13,490 nt of DNA from Candidatus Zymogenus sp. (GTDB taxonomy: Bacteria; Desulfobacterota; Zymogenia; Zymogenales; Zymogenaceae). Positions 1 to 7,649 of this stretch are shown piece after piece (positions within the stretch are counted from its first letter, which is position 1; every line of letters begins with the position of its first letter). Location: NCBI GenBank assembly GCA_030613285.1, contig JAUWME010000017.1, positions 1 through 13,490 of the forward strand, given 5' to 3'. The translations under genes and the position numbers were made by a program. Under the pieces are notes generated by a model. That model worked only from the letters and a program-made list of their open reading frames with translations. It did no database searches and was not told the origin of the DNA.

Positions 1-429
1 ATTTTGCGGATATGTTTTGTATGGAATGGGTGTTGCAGAAACGGGCTGGATGGCGCCGGCCTCGCTGGTTCCCTGTCTTCCCGGCCCAACCGCAAGCTGA
101 CAGAAAAACTTTGCCCCGAACGAGTGTACGTGCTCAACCAGGTCTGACATCATTGGCACAAACAGTTCATTGTAGAGAGACGCATTGTTGTATTTTCTAT
201 AAGTATCTGCGGTGGGGTGATTGGTGCCACCTACCGCTTCCATGATGATAAGCCCCGTTCCACCCTTGGCCCTGGCCGAATAGTAGGCCATCTGTTGTTT
301 GCTCACGTAACGATCTGGTGCAGTGTAGTTCATATTCATCGGTGCCATGGCGATGCGGTTTTTGATCTCTACATTTCCGATTTTAATTGGCTCAAAGATT
401 GCATCGTAATCTCCTTTTTTTGCACTCAT
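1..429 (-). CDS. Old Yellow Enzyme family NADH:flavin oxidoreductase (N-terminal part)
   Basis: This is the first 143 residues of an FMN-dependent oxidoreductase of the OYE / 2,4-dienoyl-CoA reductase / enoate reductase group; it stays open to the left edge. Visible family features are the opening strand and loop IFEPIKIGNVEIKNRIAMAPM (residues 11-31, FMN phosphate side of the TIM barrel), YSARAKGGTGLIIMEA (50-65) and QLAVGPGRQG (111-120), the counterpart of the family QLxHxGR segment with the histidine replaced. The ATG is preceded by GAAGGAT about 7 nt upstream. It is the last visible gene of a seven-gene run on this strand, 110 bp after the DUF35 gene, so it probably reduces a C=C bond in the same acyl-CoA pathway. 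Whether it carries the C-terminal FeS and FAD/NAD domains of dienoyl-CoA reductases cannot be seen. The family call is secure; the substrate is unknown. Confidence 0.88.
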   Translation of the reverse strand, partial: MSAKKGDYDAIFEPIKIGNVEIKNRIAMAPMNMNYTAPDRYVSKQQMAYYSARAKGGTGLIIMEAVGGTNHPTADTYRKYNNASLYNELFVPMMSDLVEHVHSFGAKFFCQLAVGPGRQGTSEAGAIQPVSATPIPYKTYPQN

Positions 430-539
430 TAGATATCCTTCACTAAATTTAAGTTTATGTTATAAAGAATGTTCTCAAAAAATATTTCTCAAAGAACTAT
501 CTCTAAAAAACTTATAAGGTTAAAAACTTTTTCATTCAC
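430..539 (-). other. AT-rich intergenic spacer between the DUF35 and OYE genes
   Basis: This 110-bp AT-rich gap is the longest inside the operon. On the minus strand it contains two copies of TTTGAGAA and a loose inverted pair GTTCT...AGAAC (about 471-497). I see no clear terminator and no well-spaced -35/-10 pair, so read-through into the OYE gene is the simplest reading; an internal promoter or processing site is possible. Confidence 0.3.
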
Positions 540-965
540 TCAATTGCCATTGGTTGGCCTGAACTTGGGGAGCGTAATCTCATCGGTGGCTCTTTCAAAC
601 ACTACCTCCACCGGCATGTCACAACTGATTTTATCGAAATCACACTCCACGATATTGCTCATAAACCGAAACCCCTCATCAAGCGCTATTATCGCCAGGG
701 CATAAGGGACGTGGGGCATAAACTCAGGGGGGGCCATGTCGTAAGTTACCGTGAAGGTGTGAATCTTCCCCTTACCCTTCGATTCTTTCCACCCAAGGTT
801 TTGGCTCATACAGTTCGTACAGAACATCTTCGGGAAGAAGATTACCTCGCCGCAGTCCTTACACTCTTGGTAGAGTAGCTTGTTCTCCTTACACCCGTCC
901 CAGAAAATCTTGCTAAGGCCTGTTATCAACGGCAGTGGTTTCGTATATTCATTCGTTTGTGTCAT
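540..965 (-). CDS. DUF35 zinc-ribbon/OB-fold acyl-CoA-associated protein
   Basis: This 141-residue protein has the DUF35 layout. An N-terminal helical stretch is followed by a rubredoxin-like zinc ribbon with C35-x2-C38 and C49-x2-C52, then an OB-fold that starts around residue 65 (KGKIHTFTVTYDMAPPEF) and includes VPYALAIIALDEG. DUF35 proteins are small obligate partners of thiolase-superfamily enzymes (ChsH2 C-terminus with Ltp2, BbsA with BbsB, archaeal HMG-CoA synthase with thiolase), where they help bind CoA and bridge subunits. Its start lies only 6 bp after the stop of the thiolase-fold gene and has a GGGAGGT ribosome site 10 nt upstream, so the two are surely translated together. The inferred role is structural and CoA-binding subunit of the upstream thiolase-fold enzyme. 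All four zinc cysteines are present. Confidence 0.92.
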   Translation of the reverse strand: MTQTNEYTKPLPLITGLSKIFWDGCKENKLLYQECKDCGEVIFFPKMFCTNCMSQNLGWKESKGKGKIHTFTVTYDMAPPEFMPHVPYALAIIALDEGFRFMSNIVECDFDKISCDMPVEVVFERATDEITLPKFRPTNGN

Positions 966-971
966 CTTATG

Positions 972-2156
972 CTATACCTCCCTTCCTAATATACCCACAT
1001 GAAAGTCCATCCCCACACCCCCGGAAGCCGTCTCGACGACGTATTTTACGTCCTTTACCTGCCTCTCCCCGGCCTTTCCCATTATCTGCCGGGCAGCCTC
1101 CACAAGGATTGCCACACCGCCCCCGGCCCCCGTGTGTCCCTGAGCCATCATTGCCCCATTCGTTGAAACGGGGAGTTTTCCCCCTGGAGATGTATGACCA
1201 TCCTCTACAAATTTTCCCGCTTCCCCCCTTTTGCATAGATCCAATATTTCCATGGATATCAAGATAAAGGTGGGGAATGCATCATAAAGCTCCGCAACGC
1301 CGATGTCCTTCGGCCCCACACTCGCCATTTCGTAAGCTTCTTTTGCCGCAGGTCCCCAGGCCTTAATTATATTCGTGGGCTGGGCTGTTACGGTAAAATT
1401 CGTGCACCTCGAACCCATTCCGAGGATATATGCCGGCGTGTCGGTCATATCATCAGCTCTCTCTTTTGTTGTAACAATAAATGCCGCAGCGCCGTCTGCC
1501 AATATGTTCATCATCCGTTTTCTGACAGGAGATGACAGCATCGGTGAATCTACAACCTCATCTGCGCTCCTCTCTTTTTTCATCATCGCATTGGGGTTCA
1601 GCATCGCCCACTTTCTGAGAGACTCCACAACAGAGGCAATTTGCCTTTCGGTGGTTCCCGTGTCATACATATATCTTTGCTGGAGCATCCCGGCAAGCGC
1701 CAGCTGGGAAAAACCAAAGGGCGCTTCGTATTCCTGGCTTATTGACGCCTTTGCAAACATTGTTATTGCGGCGTTCAAATCAAGGCCGGTTCCCATGCGG
1801 TCTGAATGCACCACCAGAACGGCCTTTGAAAGCCCCGTTGTTACAAGGGCTGTTGCCACCTTTAACGCATTTGCAGAGCTCGACCCACCGCTCATTAACT
1901 GAAAATTTGACTTTGCCACAGAGCCGAGGCCCAACTCCTCAACCACCCAAGAGCAGACCATGTTGGCGTTGTCAAGGGAATTTGCCACAACGCCGATGGG
2001 TATCACTGTGTCAATATCATTTTTGTTTATCCCGGCATCCTTGATGGCATCAGCAGATACCGAGATCGCAGCATCGATAAATGATCTGTCTGGGTACATA
2101 CCGGTGGGGACTTCGCCGATTCCTACAATTGCCGCCTTACCACGAATTGTGCTCAT
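972..2156 (-). CDS. Thiolase-fold acyl-CoA enzyme lacking the nucleophilic cysteine (SCP-x/Ltp2-like)
   Basis: The protein has 394 residues. I chose the ATG at 2156 because AAGGAG sits 7 nt upstream and the protein then begins MSTIRGKAAIVGIGEVPTG, the usual start of lipid-transfer-protein/SCP-x thiolases; the longer frame only overlaps the dehydrogenase gene. The N-terminal half has the thiolase core. At the point where thiolases carry CASG, this one reads LMSGGSSSANAL (87-98), with Gly91 aligned to the Cys. The second half has ELYDAFPTF (289-297, a Tyr where many SCP-x thiolases have His), GGKLPVSTNG and QGHTGAGG (H341). The C-terminal CGG-type cysteine is replaced by TASGGVGMD. Together with its adjacent DUF35 partner this resembles Ltp2, which performs retro-aldol cleavage of beta-hydroxyacyl-CoAs. 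A non-standard thiolase or condensing enzyme is the alternative. Confidence 0.88.
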   Translation of the reverse strand: MSTIRGKAAIVGIGEVPTGMYPDRSFIDAAISVSADAIKDAGINKNDIDTVIPIGVVANSLDNANMVCSWVVEELGLGSVAKSNFQLMSGGSSSANALKVATALVTTGLSKAVLVVHSDRMGTGLDLNAAITMFAKASISQEYEAPFGFSQLALAGMLQQRYMYDTGTTERQIASVVESLRKWAMLNPNAMMKKERSADEVVDSPMLSSPVRKRMMNILADGAAAFIVTTKERADDMTDTPAYILGMGSRCTNFTVTAQPTNIIKAWGPAAKEAYEMASVGPKDIGVAELYDAFPTFILISMEILDLCKRGEAGKFVEDGHTSPGGKLPVSTNGAMMAQGHTGAGGGVAILVEAARQIMGKAGERQVKDVKYVVETASGGVGMDFHVGILGREV

Positions 2157-2197
2157 AAATTTTCTCCTTTTCTTGAAATGCATATAATTTTTATTTT

Positions 2198-3340
2198 CTA
2201 CAAACCGGTCAGAAGCCTTCCGATGACGAGCCTTTGAATCTGGGACGTGCCCCCGCCGATTGTGGCCATCTTGCTGAACCAAAAGTTTCTGCCGATGGGG
2301 TATTCCTTCATGCAGCCATATCCTCCGAATATCTGAACAGCCTTTCTGGATGATCGCTCTGCGGCTTCTGATATGAATGTCTTTGCAATGGCAGCATCCA
2401 AACCGATAAATTCGCCCCTGTCCTTTTTCCATGCGACAAGATAGGTGAGATACCGGGATGCCTCAAGATCCATCTTCATCTCCGCAAGCATTGCCTGTAC
2501 AAGCTGAAACTTACCGATGGGTTTCCCAAACTGCTTTCTCTCCTTTGAATATTCAATACACGCATCGAGATCCGCCTCCATAAGACCAATCGTGGGAGCA
2601 AAGGCTATCCGCTCCCAGCCCAACGTGTAGAGCATCGCCTGAAATCCCTCTCCTTCTCCGCCCAACATATTTTCTGCCGGTACTTTGCAGTCGTCGAAAA
2701 ATATCTCACCGGTGGGCGTGCTTTTCCCCTCGTATTTCTCCAAAGGTTTGCCTACCGTCAGTCCGGGGGTATCCTTTTCGACTATAAAGATTGTAAGTCC
2801 CCCGGCCCTCTTTTCGAGATCGGTGGATGCAAACACTATAAATAGATCGGCAATGGGGGCATTGGATATGAAGGTCTTGCTGCCGTTGAGGATGTAACTG
2901 TCTCCATCTTTTGTTGCAGTGGTTTTAAGCCCCGTGGCATCAGACCCAGCCTCAGGCTCCGTCAGAGCAAAGGCGCCAATCTTTTCACCCGTGGCCATCT
3001 TGGGAAGATACGTCTTCTTTTGTTCCTCTGTCCCCAGTTCCACAATCGGCATGGCGCCAATCAGAAGATGAGACCCCCACACCACACAAAGAGACCCATC
3101 CCAACCTCCATGTCCAAAGGCCTCGAGCCCAACCACCGTTGTCATCGCATCGGCGCCGCCGCCCCCATACTCCTCAGGGATACTTAGTCCCAAAAGACCC
3201 ATTTCCCCCATCTTCTTCCAGATATCATACGAAAACCCCTCTTCCTCTCTTGCGGTAATTCCGGGTCGTATCTCCTTTTCGGCAAATTTAAGAATAGAAT
3301 CCTTGAACATTGTCTGTTCTTCTGTAAAGCTAAAATCCAT
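2198..3340 (-). CDS. Acyl-CoA dehydrogenase
   Basis: This 380-residue FAD flavoprotein should introduce an alpha,beta double bond into an acyl-CoA and pass electrons to an electron-transferring flavoprotein. The ATG at 3340 is chosen because AAGGAG lies 7 nt upstream and the protein then starts MDFSFTEEQ, the family norm. Seen in order are the helical N-terminal domain, FALTEPEAGSDATG (124-137, FAD/substrate loop), the beta domain with NGSKTFISNA (152-161), and the C-terminal helical domain with ERKQFGKPIGKFQLVQ (267-282), QIFGGYG (336-342) and IGGGTSQIQR (361-370). The usual short/medium-chain catalytic Glu is Gly here (G363). A Glu is present at E243 in GWERIAF, the position used by isovaleryl-CoA and long-chain dehydrogenases, so the enzyme is predicted active. 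It sits 14 bp after the MaoC stop and 41 bp before the thiolase-fold gene. Confidence 0.95.
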   Translation of the reverse strand: MDFSFTEEQTMFKDSILKFAEKEIRPGITAREEEGFSYDIWKKMGEMGLLGLSIPEEYGGGGADAMTTVVGLEAFGHGGWDGSLCVVWGSHLLIGAMPIVELGTEEQKKTYLPKMATGEKIGAFALTEPEAGSDATGLKTTATKDGDSYILNGSKTFISNAPIADLFIVFASTDLEKRAGGLTIFIVEKDTPGLTVGKPLEKYEGKSTPTGEIFFDDCKVPAENMLGGEGEGFQAMLYTLGWERIAFAPTIGLMEADLDACIEYSKERKQFGKPIGKFQLVQAMLAEMKMDLEASRYLTYLVAWKKDRGEFIGLDAAIAKTFISEAAERSSRKAVQIFGGYGCMKEYPIGRNFWFSKMATIGGGTSQIQRLVIGRLLTGL

Positions 3341-3354
3341 CTTTTTACTCCTTA

Positions 3355-3786
3355 TCAATTTCGTGATGGTAGGGCAACTGTTGCTTCGCCAACGATGGCG
3401 TTTTCTCCATGCTGATTGACCACAAAGAGCTCGCAATCCACAAGGTTTTTGTCGTCCTTGGTGTATTTTTTTGTAACCTTTCCCTTGAAGGTAAGAGTGT
3501 CTTTTGGCCAGACTTGAGACGCAAACCTTATTTTGTATCTCTTTACATTGCCGTCACCGGCCCAATCTGTAACAACCCTTGTCAAAAAACTGCCGTGCAT
3601 AAGCCCCATGGCAAATACTGAAGGGAGTCCAACTGACTTTGCAAATTCCTCGTCGTGATGAATGGGATTGAAATCCCCCCCTGCGCCTGCGTACTTTACA
3701 AAATGGGTGCGATTTACGGTTACCTCAAAGGAGGGGAGCTCCTCGCTGTCTGCTACATCTTCAAAATATTTTTTTATATCTTCCAT
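3355..3786 (-). CDS. MaoC-like enoyl-CoA hydratase (catalytic hot-dog subunit)
   Basis: This 143-residue single hot-dog protein has the hydratase-2 motif YAGAGGDFNPIHHDEEFA (32-49). The presumed catalytic pair is D38 and H43, followed by GLMHGSFLTRVV (61-72). It should add water to a 2-enoyl-CoA. The gene lies between the FAS1-like partner and the dehydrogenase. Its stop codon falls just upstream of the ribosome-binding site of the dehydrogenase gene, consistent with coupling. The ATG at 3786 has only a weak AGGT 8 nt upstream, so it may depend on translation of the gene before it. At about 140 residues it matches single-domain (R)-hydratases and the ChsH1/HadB type, which pair with a second hot-dog protein; that partner is probably the preceding gene. 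Confidence 0.92.
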   Translation of the reverse strand: MEDIKKYFEDVADSEELPSFEVTVNRTHFVKYAGAGGDFNPIHHDEEFAKSVGLPSVFAMGLMHGSFLTRVVTDWAGDGNVKRYKIRFASQVWPKDTLTFKGKVTKKYTKDDKNLVDCELFVVNQHGENAIVGEATVALPSRN

Positions 3787-3829
3787 TTTTGTTACCTGTT
3801 CAATTGTTATACAATATTTGTTTTTCTAA

Positions 3830-4288
3830 CTAACTCCTCTCAATAAAAACATTCTTCATTGCTGCTACCGGCTTATCATTCTCATCAAAAAAGCTGATTG
3901 TTACCTCAACGAAGGTCATCTTTCCGCCCCGTTTTCCTTCCTTTTCGTAAATATCCCCGATACTTATTTCACCCCTTAAAGTCTCCCCGGCAGCAATTGG
4001 CCGCTCGATGGTGAATTCTGCCTCACCGTGAACGCTGGTGGCAAGGTTCATCTCCAATTTCAGCATCATCTCAACTATCAGGTTCTCTGAAGGGAGGTGA
4101 AAGGCGAAGGTCGCCGGAAATGTTACTGGCATAATCACGCTGTCAAAGCCCAGTCCCTGGGCGTACTCAACGTCCCTGTAAACAGGGTTGGGGTCTAATA
4201 TCGCTCCTGCAAATTCCTTGATCTTTCCCTGCTCCACAGGAAATTCAAACTCCCCAAATTTTGTCCCCGACAGATTTTTTTTGACCAT
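3830..4288 (-). CDS. FAS1-like/MaoC N-terminal dehydratase-domain protein (hot-dog partner subunit)
   Basis: This 152-residue protein looks like the MaoC N-terminal (FAS1-like dehydratase, HadA-type) hot-dog family. Key stretches are FAGAILDPNPVYRDVEYAQ (26-44), VIMPVTFPATFAF (51-63), HGEAEFTIERPIAAGETLRG (87-106) and the closing strands KMTFVEVTISFFDENDKPV. The motif has D32 and N34, but a Tyr (Y37) where the catalytic hydratase-2 motif has His, so it is likely the non-catalytic half of a heterodimer with the downstream MaoC protein 43 bp away. The inferred role is to widen the acyl-binding pocket for a bulky substrate, as in HadAB and ChsH1/ChsH2. The start is supported by AGAGGAG about 8 nt upstream. 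Confidence 0.88.
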   Translation of the reverse strand: MVKKNLSGTKFGEFEFPVEQGKIKEFAGAILDPNPVYRDVEYAQGLGFDSVIMPVTFPATFAFHLPSENLIVEMMLKLEMNLATSVHGEAEFTIERPIAAGETLRGEISIGDIYEKEGKRGGKMTFVEVTISFFDENDKPVAAMKNVFIERS

Positions 4289-4320
4289 AACTATACTCCT
4301 CTAATATCTATTATCTGTTT

Positions 4321-6114
4321 TTAAGAATACATCTCATTTATTTCCTTTTCGTATCGCTCAACCACGGCAAACCGTTTTATCTTCTTCAGGCTTGTCAACT
4401 CACCGTCTTCCTCTGACAGAGGTATCGGCAGTATCTTGAACTTTTTAATCTGCTCCACCCGGGAAAGTTTATCATTGACCTCACTTATATGTTTCTCAAT
4501 CTCCTCGCCTATACCCTTAACATTTAGCAGATCATCATAGCTCTTAACGCTAATCCCCTTATTTGTCCCGAAGGGGATACCCCCCTCAAGGCTGAGCGTC
4601 AAAAGGGCGGTGATATATTTTTTGCCTTCCCCCACAAGCACAGCGTGTTCAACAAGGGGATGACTCATAAGCGATGCCTCGATCTTGGCGGGCGAAATAT
4701 TCTTGGCACCCGATGTGATTATGATATCCTTTTTTCGGCCCGTGATGAAGAGATAACCATCTTCGTCTAAATATCCAAGGTCGCCGGAATAGAGCCATCC
4801 ATCTCGGAAAGTTTCGGCGGTAAGTTCTTTGTCCTTGTAGTAGCCGGGAGAAACCATGTTGCTCTTTACCATTATCTCGCCATCGGCTGCAATTTTGATC
4901 TCGGTCAATGGAAAGGGTTTTCCAACAGAGCCAAATCTGAGAGACTCCCTTGTCTCGGCCGAGCCTATCCCCAGTGCCTCCGACTGTCCGTAGACCTGGC
5001 AAATCCAGATACCCAGAGAAAAGAAGAAGTCGATAATCTCTTTGGATGATACCGATCCTCCGGTCATGACGTGCTTTGCATCATTGAAAAACCCCAGGGT
5101 ATCAAGGATCTTCTTGATGACAAGCTTTTCAGCAATTTTGTGCTTTACCTTCAAGGTCAGGGGTATTCTCTTCTTTTCGTAAAGGTACTTATTGTATTGC
5201 ATACCAACATTTGTAGCCCAATTAAAAATCTTCTTTTTCTTTTCAGGCATGGCATTACGATTTGCCATTACCATGTCATATATCTTCTCCCAGGTTCTCG
5301 GAAGTCCCACTACCAGTGTGGGTTGTACATTCCTCAATTCCTCGATGGCATTGTCCAATTCGCAAAAGTGGACGAGGGAGCCGGTCATTAATGGGGCCAG
5401 GAGGGAGGCACTCCTCTCAAACACATGGGCCAGAGTCAGAAAACAGCAAGTTTTTATCATCTCCGTCTCTCTTTTCATGAACTCCCACCAAACATCGACG
5501 CAAATCGCTGTTGAATAACAATTTTTCTGGGTAAGCATAACCGCCTTGGGATTGCCCGTGGTTCCGGAAGTATATATATAGGTAGCAACCATATCTTCGG
5601 TTACGGAATTTCTCAACTTAATCAATTCCTCCTCACTAATATCATTCCCGACCTTGATAAATGTTTTAAAATCCATCAAGATATCTTCACCTGAAGGTAC
5701 GGTTCCGTTAATGAGGACAATTTTTTCAAGCCCGGTTATATCCTTTAACATACCCTTTATCTTGTCATACTGGCTTATTTCCTCCACGAAAAAGAGCCTT
5801 GCCCCGGAATGGTTGAGGATATACTTTATTTGCTCTCCGCTGCTGGTAGTGTAAATCGGGGCGATTGTTGCCCCAATGGTCATAATCGACATATCGATGA
5901 CGAACCAATCGGGTGAGCTTTTACCTATTAGGGATATTTTGTCACCCGCCTTGATGCCATAACCGACGAGCGCCTTTGAAAACTCCTCGATCTTTTGTCC
6001 GTACTCCTTCCATTTCATCGTTTTAAAACCCTCACCGTCTCGATACTTTAAGTAAGGGCGATCTGGGGTGTCGTTGAGGCGTTTTTCTAACAAAGCGAAT
6101 ATAATTTTTCCCAT
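4321..6114 (-). CDS. Long-chain-type acyl-CoA synthetase (AMP-forming)
   Basis: This 597-residue adenylate-forming ligase should convert a carboxylic acid, ATP and CoA to acyl-CoA, AMP and pyrophosphate; it is the entry step of the operon. Motifs in order are the P-loop YTSGTTGNPK (181-190), the aromatic/gating region FLTLAHVFERSASL (225-238), VYGQSEALG (374-382, the YGxTE motif with Ser), YSGDLGYLDEDGYLFITGRKKD (442-463, ribose-binding D445 and hinge), and near the C-terminus GELTSLKKIKR with the expected catalytic Lys. The length fits the long-chain FadD/FAA type, which is longer than the short-chain acetyl/propionyl type only in its linker regions. A purine-rich AGGGGA lies 6 nt before the ATG. 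It is the first gene after tetR, and an operator-like palindrome lies 74 bp upstream of its start. The actual acid substrate cannot be read from the sequence. Confidence 0.95.
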   Translation of the reverse strand: MGKIIFALLEKRLNDTPDRPYLKYRDGEGFKTMKWKEYGQKIEEFSKALVGYGIKAGDKISLIGKSSPDWFVIDMSIMTIGATIAPIYTTSSGEQIKYILNHSGARLFFVEEISQYDKIKGMLKDITGLEKIVLINGTVPSGEDILMDFKTFIKVGNDISEEELIKLRNSVTEDMVATYIYTSGTTGNPKAVMLTQKNCYSTAICVDVWWEFMKRETEMIKTCCFLTLAHVFERSASLLAPLMTGSLVHFCELDNAIEELRNVQPTLVVGLPRTWEKIYDMVMANRNAMPEKKKKIFNWATNVGMQYNKYLYEKKRIPLTLKVKHKIAEKLVIKKILDTLGFFNDAKHVMTGGSVSSKEIIDFFFSLGIWICQVYGQSEALGIGSAETRESLRFGSVGKPFPLTEIKIAADGEIMVKSNMVSPGYYKDKELTAETFRDGWLYSGDLGYLDEDGYLFITGRKKDIIITSGAKNISPAKIEASLMSHPLVEHAVLVGEGKKYITALLTLSLEGGIPFGTNKGISVKSYDDLLNVKGIGEEIEKHISEVNDKLSRVEQIKKFKILPIPLSEEDGELTSLKKIKRFAVVERYEKEINEMYS

Positions 6115-6188: not shown

Positions 6189-6204
6189 GATAGTAAGCAC
6201 TATC
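6189..6204. promoter_or_regulatory. Predicted TetR operator at the operon promoter
   Basis: Perfect inverted repeat GATAGT-AAGC-ACTATC, 16 bp, in the 108-bp gap between tetR and the synthetase gene. It differs from the palindrome upstream of tetR at only three central bases. On the minus strand its TACTAT forms a plausible -10 (6190-6195), with a weak TTTTTA 17 bp upstream (6213-6218), so bound regulator would cover the operon promoter. Operator assignment is inference from symmetry, duplication and position. Confidence 0.75.
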
Positions 6205-6222: not shown

Positions 6223-6846
6223 TTACCTTTCCTCAAGGACTAACATATCACGCATTAGCCAAAAGAGCATCTCATTGGTGAAACACTCTGGTTCTATAAA
6301 CTCCCTGAGGGAAACTACGGTAAAATATTGATTTACAAATATCCCTGCTAAAATATGAACATCAACATCGCTTTTTAATTTCCCCTTTTTCTTCGCAGAT
6401 ATAAGTACTCTTCTTACTCCTTCTATGCATCTATCCATGAAATCTGTAAAAGTGTTCTTAAAATCCGGATCATTCCTGTAACTCAATAAGTGAACAAGAA
6501 ACATCGATTTATGGGGATTCTCTGTCACAAAATCAAAATATATTTTGATTACCCCTTTTAGATAACCTATTTCATCATCCAAGGTATTTTTATATACTTC
6601 TCTGTAGGAAGAAAGCAATTCTTCGGTAATAGATCTAAAACAGGCGAAAAACAATTCCTTTTTGTTCTTGAAATGTTTGTACATGGTTGGTTCGGAAATC
6701 TTAGCTTCCCTGGCTATCTCTGCGGTTGTGGCTGCTGTATATCCTTTTGCATTGAACAATCTTATTGCTGCATCTAATATGTTTTGATGTCGCTGTTCGT
6801 ATTCAAGGTATCTTTCTCTCGATTTTTCTACGATGTTTTTGGCCAT
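6223..6846 (-). CDS. TetR/AcrR-family transcriptional regulator
   Basis: This 207-residue regulator has the TetR N-terminal DNA-binding domain: helix 1 with NILDAAIRLFNAKGYTAAT (22-40), then the helix-turn-helix TAEIAREAKISEPTMYKHF (41-59), closed by NKKELFFACF. The remainder is an all-helical ligand-binding and dimerisation domain of no specific recognisable class. Regulators of this type next to fatty-acid degradation genes (PsrA, FadR of Bacillus and Thermus) are usually repressors released by acyl-CoA. The ATG is preceded by AGAGGAA about 8 nt upstream. The gene is transcribed in the same direction as the acyl-CoA operon and lies 108 bp before it. Matching palindromes in front of both this gene and the operon point to autoregulation and control of the operon. 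The effector is probably a CoA ester of the pathway (inference). Confidence 0.94.
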   Translation of the reverse strand: MAKNIVEKSRERYLEYEQRHQNILDAAIRLFNAKGYTAATTAEIAREAKISEPTMYKHFKNKKELFFACFRSITEELLSSYREVYKNTLDDEIGYLKGVIKIYFDFVTENPHKSMFLVHLLSYRNDPDFKNTFTDFMDRCIEGVRRVLISAKKKGKLKSDVDVHILAGIFVNQYFTVVSLREFIEPECFTNEMLFWLMRDMLVLEER

Positions 6847-6936: not shown

Positions 6937-6956
6937 TAGATAGTACCTACTATCTA
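6937..6956. promoter_or_regulatory. Predicted TetR operator upstream of tetR
   Basis: Perfect 20-bp inverted repeat: TAGATAGTA, CC, TACTATCTA. Its inner 16 bp (6939-6954) match the operator at 6189-6204 at 13 of 16 positions. It covers the -10 element and probable start site of the tetR promoter, the classical arrangement for autorepression. Binding by the encoded regulator is inferred. Confidence 0.8.

Positions 6957-7562: not shown

Positions 7563-7649
<87 letters not shown>

What the first reader, a model, noticed from the sequence alone, without database searches (positions are those of the whole stretch)
1..6114. Operon resembles a split, anaerobic-type version of the steroid side-chain (igr) retro-aldolase module
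The order synthetase, FAS1-like hot-dog, MaoC hot-dog, acyl-CoA dehydrogenase, Ltp2-like thiolase-fold protein, DUF35, OYE reductase reproduces the functional set of the actinobacterial igr operon (ChsE dehydrogenase, ChsH1/ChsH2 hydratase, Ltp2 aldolase). Here the MaoC-like and DUF35 halves of ChsH2 are on separate genes, only one dehydrogenase is present, and no cytochrome P450 is seen. It suggests a pathway for a bulky or alpha-branched acid (sterol or isoprenoid side chain, or an aromatic-substituted acid) that ends in C-C cleavage without classical thiolysis.
Basis: partly seen in the sequence, partly recalled or inferred. Interest (0 to 1): 0.75.

Follow-up and report, generated by a model that had tools for sequence, protein, structure and literature searches.

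The report
Acid-degrading operon with thiolase-fold aldolase
A deltaproteobacterium carries a small, tightly regulated gene set that probably activates a bulky or branched acid and snips it apart by a retro-aldol reaction, using an uncharacterised branch of the enzyme family that some bacteria use to cut steroid side chains.

Summary
In detail: every gene named is present, in that order, and the set recurs. Hot-dog, hot-dog, dehydrogenase, thiolase-fold and DUF35 genes keep their order in 7 of 8 loci (other genes inserted in two); the eighth contig starts inside the second gene. A tetR gene and two copies of one palindromic operator, the only exact copies in the 2.84 Mb assembly, suggest a dedicated inducible module.

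The thiolase-fold protein is probably not a thiolase. The cysteine nucleophile is glycine in 118 of 118 homologues with a residue there. In the tree it groups with the steroid aldolases Ltp2 and Sal, apart from BbsB and the Cys-thiolases (100/100), although pairwise an archaeal Cys-thiolase scores slightly higher. Its predicted catalytic set (Tyr291, Ala293, His341) differs from Ltp2 and Sal and may be a third solution to the same reaction.

So it probably works like igr but is not an igr member: one dehydrogenase with an isovaleryl/long-chain-type base, a HadAB-like hydratase, a separate DUF35 protein, no steroid gene recognised in the window. The substrate is unproven; a beta-branched (isoprenoid-like) or bulky acid fits best. 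The host lies near Candidatus Zymogenaceae.

The parts
1..429 (-). OYE / 2,4-dienoyl-CoA-reductase-like flavoenzyme, 3' part cut off by the contig end
   Evidence: PF00724; 82% identical to the full-length 457-aa OYE of L008, whose best PDB match is FadH 1ps9 and which shows only PF00724, no FAD/NAD domain
540..965 (-). DUF35 (ChsH2 C-terminal type) protein, separate gene, C4 zinc finger C-x2-C-x10-C-x2-C
   Evidence: PF12172 + PF01796; best PDB 9myr_B, 6esq_E, 6ok1_B; motif in 9 of 9 aligned copies
972..2156 (-). non-cysteine thiolase-fold protein, proposed acyl-CoA retro-aldolase (Tyr291, Ala293, His341)
   Evidence: PF22691; trees with Ltp2/Sal; residue counts; AF2 model pLDDT 85.3
2198..3340 (-). 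acyl-CoA dehydrogenase with isovaleryl/long-chain-type base (WER) and Gly at the MCAD Glu position
   Evidence: PF00441/PF02770/PF02771; alignment of 8 loci
3355..3786 (-). MaoC hot-dog, HadB-like, with the hydratase motif GDFNPIHHD: proposed catalytic half of the hydratase
   Evidence: PF01575; PDB 5i7n MaoC-like 7e-16, HadB 2.5e-14, ChsH1 3e-9; motif GDF[NQF]P[IL]H in 8 of 8
3830..4288 (-). FAS1_DH/HadA-like hot-dog: catalytic Asp in 5 of 7 and His in 1 of 7 copies; proposed inert partner
   Evidence: PF13452; PDB 5i7n 5e-8, HadA types 6e-5 to 2e-4; alignment
4321..6114 (-). AMP-binding acyl-CoA synthetase
   Evidence: PF00501 + PF23562; FadD11-like, 339 bits against a cut-off of 950
6189..6204 (.). 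operator-like site GATAGTNNNNACTATC in the tetR-synthetase gap
   Evidence: exact match; one of only 2 exact sites in the whole assembly
6223..6846 (-). TetR-family regulator
   Evidence: PF00440; 55-58% identical tetR beside the operon in L005, L006 and L010, 41% in L011
6939..6954 (.). second copy of the operator-like site, upstream of tetR
   Evidence: exact match

Best explanation
A TetR-controlled, patchily distributed catabolic operon. The synthetase makes the CoA ester of a carboxylic acid. The acyl-CoA dehydrogenase, whose base position suits branched or bulky substrates, forms the 2-enoyl-CoA. The HadA/HadB-like pair (one half inert) adds water to give a beta-hydroxyacyl-CoA. The non-cysteine thiolase-fold protein, bound to the separate DUF35 protein, cleaves the alpha-beta bond by a retro-aldol reaction to acetyl- or propionyl-CoA plus a ketone or aldehyde. 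Tyr291 would take the proton from the beta-hydroxyl and His341 would protonate the enolate. The OYE enzyme would reduce a remaining C=C bond. Shown by computation: gene content, order, conservation, residues, tree, operator-like sites. Inferred: the reaction, residue roles, complex formation, TetR binding and substrate. The substrate that best explains retro-aldol cleavage instead of beta-oxidation is one whose beta-carbon becomes a tertiary alcohol, such as a 3-methyl-branched isoprenoid acid (substrate class about 0.25).
For: Cys nucleophile replaced by Gly in 118 of 118 homologues with a residue there; Tyr291 in 119 of 120, His341 in 120 of 120, His117 in 119 of 119. Two trees place it with Ltp2, Sal and 4u4e: 100/97 apart from the Cys-thiolases, 100/100 with BbsB added to the other side. 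All 9 BbsB-type rows keep C..HD(A/C)F..GHP. In CtSal and TcLtp2 the equivalent Tyr is essential, and CtSal has Gly for the Cys (PMC12329534, parts 1-4 of 7 read). DUF35 gene 6 bp away, C4 finger in 9 of 9. Comamonas MaoC and DUF35 parts expressed apart still gave both activities (PMC12502768, abstract and passages), so split genes are no obstacle. Core order in 7 of 8 loci. ACAD with WER + IGGGT in 8 of 8; Gly/Ala at that position is described for LCAD, isovaleryl- and benzylmalonyl-CoA dehydrogenases (PMC11659651, passages), and LCAD/ChsE4 take bulky substrates (PMC11153573, passages). No hydroxyacyl-CoA dehydrogenase in the visible part of the window operon. AF2 model: 30-residue low-confidence beta4-alpha4 loop with a short helix, as described for CtSal. 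The operator pair is unique in the assembly.
Against: No activity is known for any close relative. Pairwise, an archaeal Cys-thiolase (7yvy) scores above Sal and Ltp2 and is Foldseek's first hit; the best VIA match is also a Cys-thiolase (6esq). CtSal loses all activity when the residue at the Ala293 position is Ala or Ser (PMC12329534), so the window protein needs another acid; His341 is a proposal. Sal and Ltp2 sit on long branches. Five rows on the Cys-thiolase side also lack the Cys but keep HD and GHP. An SDR that could be a hydroxyacyl-CoA dehydrogenase adjoins the core in L007 and L008 (2 of 8). All 5 sister-locus ACADs aligned also have the Glu and IGGGT, so these do not mark branched substrates specifically. 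The operon's left end is missing.
Confidence: 0.62

Rival explanations
1. It is a true steroid or bile-acid side-chain (igr/Sal-type) module.
For: Same reaction set; tree neighbours Ltp2 and Sal; below their cut-offs, the L008 OYE scores second best against bile-acid BaiCD (239 of 825 bits) and the L006 crotonase second best against EchA19 (214 of 400).
Against: YDHF/Tyr344 and YDCY motifs absent, single ACAD in the window, HadAB-like hydratase; no protein searched against NCBIfam (18 proteins) passes the cut-off of a steroid model. Whole genomes were not searched for steroid genes.
Confidence: 0.08
2. An aryl-propionate pathway: side chain of a phenylpropanoid-like acid removed by retro-aldol cleavage to an aromatic aldehyde plus acetyl-CoA.
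For: Amidohydro_2 in four sister operons; the L008 copy resembles LigW-type aromatic decarboxylases weakly (5e-10); host contig C268 encodes a protein read by eye as 2-hydroxyacyl-CoA-dehydratase-like.
Against: No Amidohydro_2 orthologue found in the window genome or in 3 of 7 others; a secondary alcohol would not need an aldolase.
Confidence: 0.14
3. The thiolase-fold protein does another non-thiolytic reaction (decarboxylation, Claisen-type or Friedel-Crafts acylation, or scaffold) and the operon works in the synthetic direction.
Against: A synthetase, a dehydrogenase and a hydratase beside it point to degradation; in sequence closer to Sal and Ltp2 (about 1e-34) than to PhlC (2e-15).
Confidence: 0.1
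4. Ordinary fatty-acid beta-oxidation operon in which thiolysis is done by a Cys-thiolase elsewhere (for example on C268).
For: The host has a Cys-thiolase with HDCF and GHP on C268.
Against: Operator pair found only here, aldolase-type protein with an adjacent DUF35 gene in 8 of 8 loci, no 3-hydroxyacyl-CoA dehydrogenase in the visible operon.
Confidence: 0.06

Closest known systems
igr module: ChsE1-ChsE2, ChsH1-ChsH2, Ltp2 (actinobacteria, Comamonas TA441)
   Same: dehydrogenation, hydration, retro-aldol cleavage; non-Cys thiolase-fold aldolase with DUF35 partner; hydratase of two hot-dog parts
   Different: MaoC and DUF35 on separate genes; one ACAD gene; YDAF + His instead of YDHF + Tyr; own synthetase, OYE and TetR; host probably an anaerobe (inferred)
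Sal-Shy (Comamonas testosteroni bile-acid aldolase/hydratase, PDB 9myr)
   Same: Gly in place of Cys, catalytic Tyr, DUF35 partner; 30-residue beta4-alpha4 loop (model)
   Different: Sal needs Cys304 (here Ala) and has Gln352 (here His); Shy DUF35 has a C3H1 finger (here C4)
4u4e, Sphaerobacter thermophilus 'thiolase' (uncharacterised, as far as the entry tells)
   Same: best sequence match in the PDB; Gly for Cys, His117, Tyr, His at position 341
   Different: 29-31% identical; YDSF and THP; function not known
BbsAB benzoylsuccinyl-CoA thiolase
   Same: thiolase fold + separate DUF35 protein
   Different: Cys thiolase (C, HDAF, GHP); other side of the tree; 135 bits against a cut-off of 750
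HadAB (3R)-hydroxyacyl-ACP dehydratase
   Same: heterodimeric hot-dog enzyme, close sequence relatives of both hot-dogs
   Different: below NCBIfam cut-offs; here probably a hydratase acting on CoA esters

Membership tests
igr / Ltp2-ChsH2 steroid aldolase module | thiolase-fold aldolase without the nucleophilic Cys, grouping with Ltp2 | tested here: met
igr / Ltp2-ChsH2 steroid aldolase module | YDHF motif plus second catalytic Tyr (Y344) | tested here: not met
   YDAF and His341
igr / Ltp2-ChsH2 steroid aldolase module | DUF35 partner with C4 zinc finger | tested here: met
   (by sequence)
igr / Ltp2-ChsH2 steroid aldolase module | DUF35 fused to a MaoC domain (ChsH2) | tested here: not met
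   separate genes
igr / Ltp2-ChsH2 steroid aldolase module | two-gene dehydrogenase ChsE1-ChsE2 | tested here: not met
   one ACAD gene in the window operon; L008 alone has a second ACAD among the 8 loci
igr / Ltp2-ChsH2 steroid aldolase module | hydratase of two hot-dog parts, one inert | tested here: met
   motif kept in the MaoC gene, His kept in only 1 of 7 FAS1 copies; by sequence only
igr / Ltp2-ChsH2 steroid aldolase module | activity on steroid CoA esters | not testable with these tools
   needs enzyme assay
igr / Ltp2-ChsH2 steroid aldolase module | further steroid-degradation genes in the genome | not tested
   only the window and chosen neighbour genes were family-searched
Sal-Shy | catalytic Cys in YDC and C3H1 zinc finger | tested here: not met
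   Ala or Ser at 293 in 119 of 120; C4 finger
BbsAB benzoylsuccinyl-CoA thiolase | NCBIfam BbsB/BbsA cut-offs and Cys active site | tested here: not met
   135 of 750 bits, 32 of 250 bits; Gly for Cys; tree
SCP2-type / DUF35-linked Cys thiolase | nucleophilic Cys, HD(C/A)F, GHP | tested here: not met
   Gly91, YDAF, GHT
isovaleryl/long-chain-type acyl-CoA dehydrogenase | base in helix G (ER), Gly/Ala at the MCAD Glu376 position | tested here: met
   8 of 8 loci, by alignment and recalled reference motifs; no family cut-off reached
HadAB dehydratase | NCBIfam HadA/HadB cut-offs | tested here: not met
   77 of 203 bits (HadB) and 56 of 180 (HadA)

The most novel reading that the evidence does not exclude
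The YDA/S + GHT clade is a third catalytic class of thiolase-fold retro-aldolases (Tyr base, His acid). It gives bacteria, anaerobes among them, a carboxylase-free route for beta-branched acids such as isoprenoid acids, in which each blocked beta-carbon is hydrated to a tertiary alcohol and cut to a ketone plus acetyl-CoA.
Probability: 0.2. Interest if true: 0.75.

Novelty: new variant of a known kind. Interest (0 to 1): 0.5.

Why it matters
In the papers found here, retro-aldolases of thiolase fold with DUF35 partners are characterised only for steroid side chains. A conserved, separately regulated clade in Deltaproteobacteria and a few other groups would extend this chemistry to other acids. 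It would show another way to rebuild a thiolase active site, and would make the breakdown of branched or bulky acids in sediments testable with one small gene set. It would also correct the label 'acetyl-CoA acetyltransferase' that sources give to several of these proteins.

Tried and rejected
BbsB-type thiolase: rejected by motif and tree and by cut-off. Fold comparison as a discriminator: uninformative, since 6esq, TbSLP, Sal, Ltp2, PhlC and BbsB lie within about 5 Z units. Amidohydro_2 as an obligatory part: rejected, orthologue found in only 4 of 8 genomes, some of them incomplete. The rest of the OYE gene: not found in the assembly. A wider regulon: 5 further sites with one mismatch against 1 for the reversed control pattern, all 5 inside reading frames of a mechanical ORF list, so no regulon is claimed. 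Co-occurrence statistics across many genomes: not possible, as the clade is rare.

Literature: DUF35 with retro-aldol (5 papers) and with anaerobic degradation and thiolase (1 paper) listed only steroid and bile-acid work; an isoprenoid retro-aldol search gave none; a terpene/ibuprofen search was swamped by unrelated papers (25 of 755 listed); Desulfatibacillum/isoprenoid, Aestuariicella albida and Zymogenia (none) gave no lead on function in their listings. The library holds only open-licence PMC papers, so absence there is weak.

Rows dropped or capped: one search scored 7,993 candidates and listed 120 of 2,541; one search scored at most 4 candidates per genome and at most 6; one search kept hits of 300 aa or more and removed identical ones (117 hits to 90); one search dropped 1 row (L077); one search left out 21 rows (18 near-copies; and L003, PDB 4yzo, L107_8171, long branches). 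A1 holds 30 of the 120 listed proteins; all 120 were counted.


Full report
WHAT IS THERE. The window is the whole of contig C373 of a 2.84 Mb, 546-contig genome, 88% complete. Eight minus-strand genes run from 6846 down to the left edge: tetR, AMP-binding synthetase, FAS1_DH hot-dog, MaoC hot-dog, acyl-CoA dehydrogenase (ACAD), thiolase-fold protein, DUF35, and an OYE gene cut by the contig end. Gaps from synthetase to DUF35 are 6 to 43 bp; the tetR-synthetase gap is 108 bp and the DUF35-OYE gap 110 bp. To the right lie tRNA-Leu, trigger factor (Pfam), and genes that I read as clpP, clpX and lon (by eye, not searched). The named trigger-factor relatives are labelled Deltaproteobacteria/Candidatus Zymogenaceae. 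Its anaerobic life is inferred from this placement (recalled) and from by-eye reading of other contigs.

IT IS A CONSERVED UNIT. One pattern-based scan of 84,980 species genomes returned 74 loci: 7 with a thiolase-fold protein 73-80% identical, the other 67 at 24-44% over the best segment (a lower bound). The seven come, by record title, from Desulfatibacillum, Deltaproteobacteria/Proteobacteria/bacterium bins, the gammaproteobacterium Aestuariicella albida and an Acidimicrobium-labelled bin. FAS1-MaoC-ACAD-thiolase-DUF35 stand in this order in the window and in L005, L006, L008, L009, L010 and L011; a second ACAD intervenes in L008, a synthetase and OYE in L011. L007 starts inside maoC and continues in order. 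A synthetase 45-65% identical adjoins in L005, L006, L009 and L010; L008 and L011 have a different one. An OYE relative is beside or inside the core in 5 of 8 (window, L006 twice, L008, L010, L011). An Amidohydro_2 gene is in four operons (L006, L008, L010, L011); no orthologue was found in the other four genomes, the window's included. The clade is rare: 6 of 395 phylum genomes matched at E<=1e-110, of which 3, the window's own included, hold a close copy; 1 of 244 in the order of A. albida, the centre itself. Of 59 genomes of kin including its own, 7 matched at E<=1e-60, the others at 35-42%. In G001-G003 the tRNA-Leu/trigger-factor junction is present without any gene of the window's operon beside it; one FMN-reductase-like hit (38% over 102 aa) to an L006 accessory gene was the only match. 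So the operon was gained here or lost there. A protein search found 2541 relatives, 120 listed.

REGULATION. GATAGTNNNNACTATC occurs at 6189-6204 (tetR-synthetase gap) and 6939-6954 (before tetR): 2 exact sites in the window against 0.0012 expected from base composition (with up to 2 mismatches 3 sites against 0.33 in shuffles). These are the only two exact sites in the assembly. Five one-mismatch sites lie inside reading frames; the reversed control pattern gave 1. The core TAGTNNNNACTA appears at the same two places in Desulfatibacillum L005 (5203 and 6012 of 21 kb, its only sites) and just before the synthetase frame (94-1641) of L008. L006 has one site, away from tetR; L007, L009, L010 and L011 have none, though L011 shows other palindrome-like sequences at the two equivalent places, by eye. 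TetR binding is inferred.

PROPOSED CHEMISTRY. In Sal and Ltp2 the YD-Tyr takes the proton from the beta-hydroxyl. Sal dies when its Cys304 becomes Ala or Ser, so a protein with Ala there needs another acid. His341, invariant and at the position of Ltp2 Tyr344, is my candidate. This is inference.

PARTNERS. DUF35 has the C4 finger of ChsH2, not the C3H1 finger of Shy (9 of 9 copies). Comamonas MaoC and DUF35 parts expressed separately still gave both activities (PMC12502768, abstract and passages). The MaoC protein keeps GDF[NQF]P[IL]H in 8 of 8 and is closest to 5i7n and HadB types (7e-16 to 3e-14; ChsH1 3e-9). The FAS1 protein is HadA-like, with the catalytic Asp in 5 of 7 and His in 1 of 7 copies. 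So the hydratase resembles HadAB more than ChsH1-ChsH2 in sequence, with the same division of labour. The ACAD has WER in helix G and IGGGT in the J-K loop in 8 of 8 loci: the isovaleryl/long-chain arrangement, tied to branched and bulky substrates (PMC11659651 and PMC11153573, passages). It is not exclusive: all 5 sister-locus ACADs have the Glu and IGGGT (one with EH for ER), and the second ACAD of L008 has ER without IGGGT.

SUBSTRATE. Unresolved. For a beta-branched acid: retro-aldol cleavage is needed where the beta-carbon becomes a tertiary alcohol; the ACAD type; no hydroxyacyl-CoA dehydrogenase in the visible operon. In L010 an FAD gene scores 99 bits against the geranylgeranyl-reductase family (cut-off 159; best hit PRK11445, 116 of 303), and L006 has a 68% homologue. 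An L006 crotonase passes the PRK06142 cut-off; with a FadH-like OYE it may hint at unsaturated substrates (the hint rests on recall). For a ring: an enzyme whose best PDB match is 6-oxocamphor hydrolase (1e-42) precedes the core in L009. For steroids: sub-cut-off scores to BaiCD and EchA19 only. Against a simple reading: SDR genes in L007 and L008, and different accessory genes in each locus. The core may serve several acids.

VERDICT. Works like igr, not a member of it: a new variant of a known kind, probably with its own active-site solution. I found no description of this clade in the searches listed, which cover open-licence papers only and mostly their listings.

Noticed in passing
window 7563-7649; L166, L167, L168: The operon lies beside tRNA-Leu(tag)-trigger factor; three genomes of the family keep that junction without the operon, which suggests gain at, or loss from, a variable spot.
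   Followed up: yes
L129 (contig C363 of the window's genome) 3-2782: Two further thiolase-fold proteins (the complete one without the nucleophilic Cys, motif YDPQ; the other cut by the contig start) followed by two genes that read by eye as DUF35-like: another unexplained thiolase/DUF35 set in the same genome.
   Followed up: partly
L009 6362-7234: Crotonase before the Aestuariicella core whose best PDB relative is 6-oxocamphor hydrolase, hinting at cyclic beta-diketone hydrolysis.
   Followed up: partly
L006 16177-17097, L008 8826-9755, L010 7365-8291, L011 4052-4954: Related Amidohydro_2 proteins (49-70% identical to the L008 copy) in four of the operons; the L008 copy has no NCBIfam match at 1e-10. 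Function unknown.
   Followed up: partly
L106, L107, L108, L110: Sister operons (47-52% thiolase-fold identity) carry genes that look like phytoene-desaturase-type FAD enzymes (label by eye, not searched).
   Followed up: no
L006 17177-20996: Molybdoenzyme with a pyrogallol-hydroxytransferase-like first domain (PF21423) and an Fe-S subunit downstream of the operon.
   Followed up: no
L005 691-5108: LuxE-like, LuxC-like (acyl-CoA reductase) and a distant OYE gene directly upstream of tetR in Desulfatibacillum.
   Followed up: no
L011 12540-13679: URO-D/MtaA-like methyltransferase downstream of the Acidimicrobium-labelled operon.
   Followed up: no
L030, L032: Acetobacteraceae proteins with YDAF, MHS and His117 group with 4u4e: another uncharacterised non-Cys branch.
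   Followed up: no
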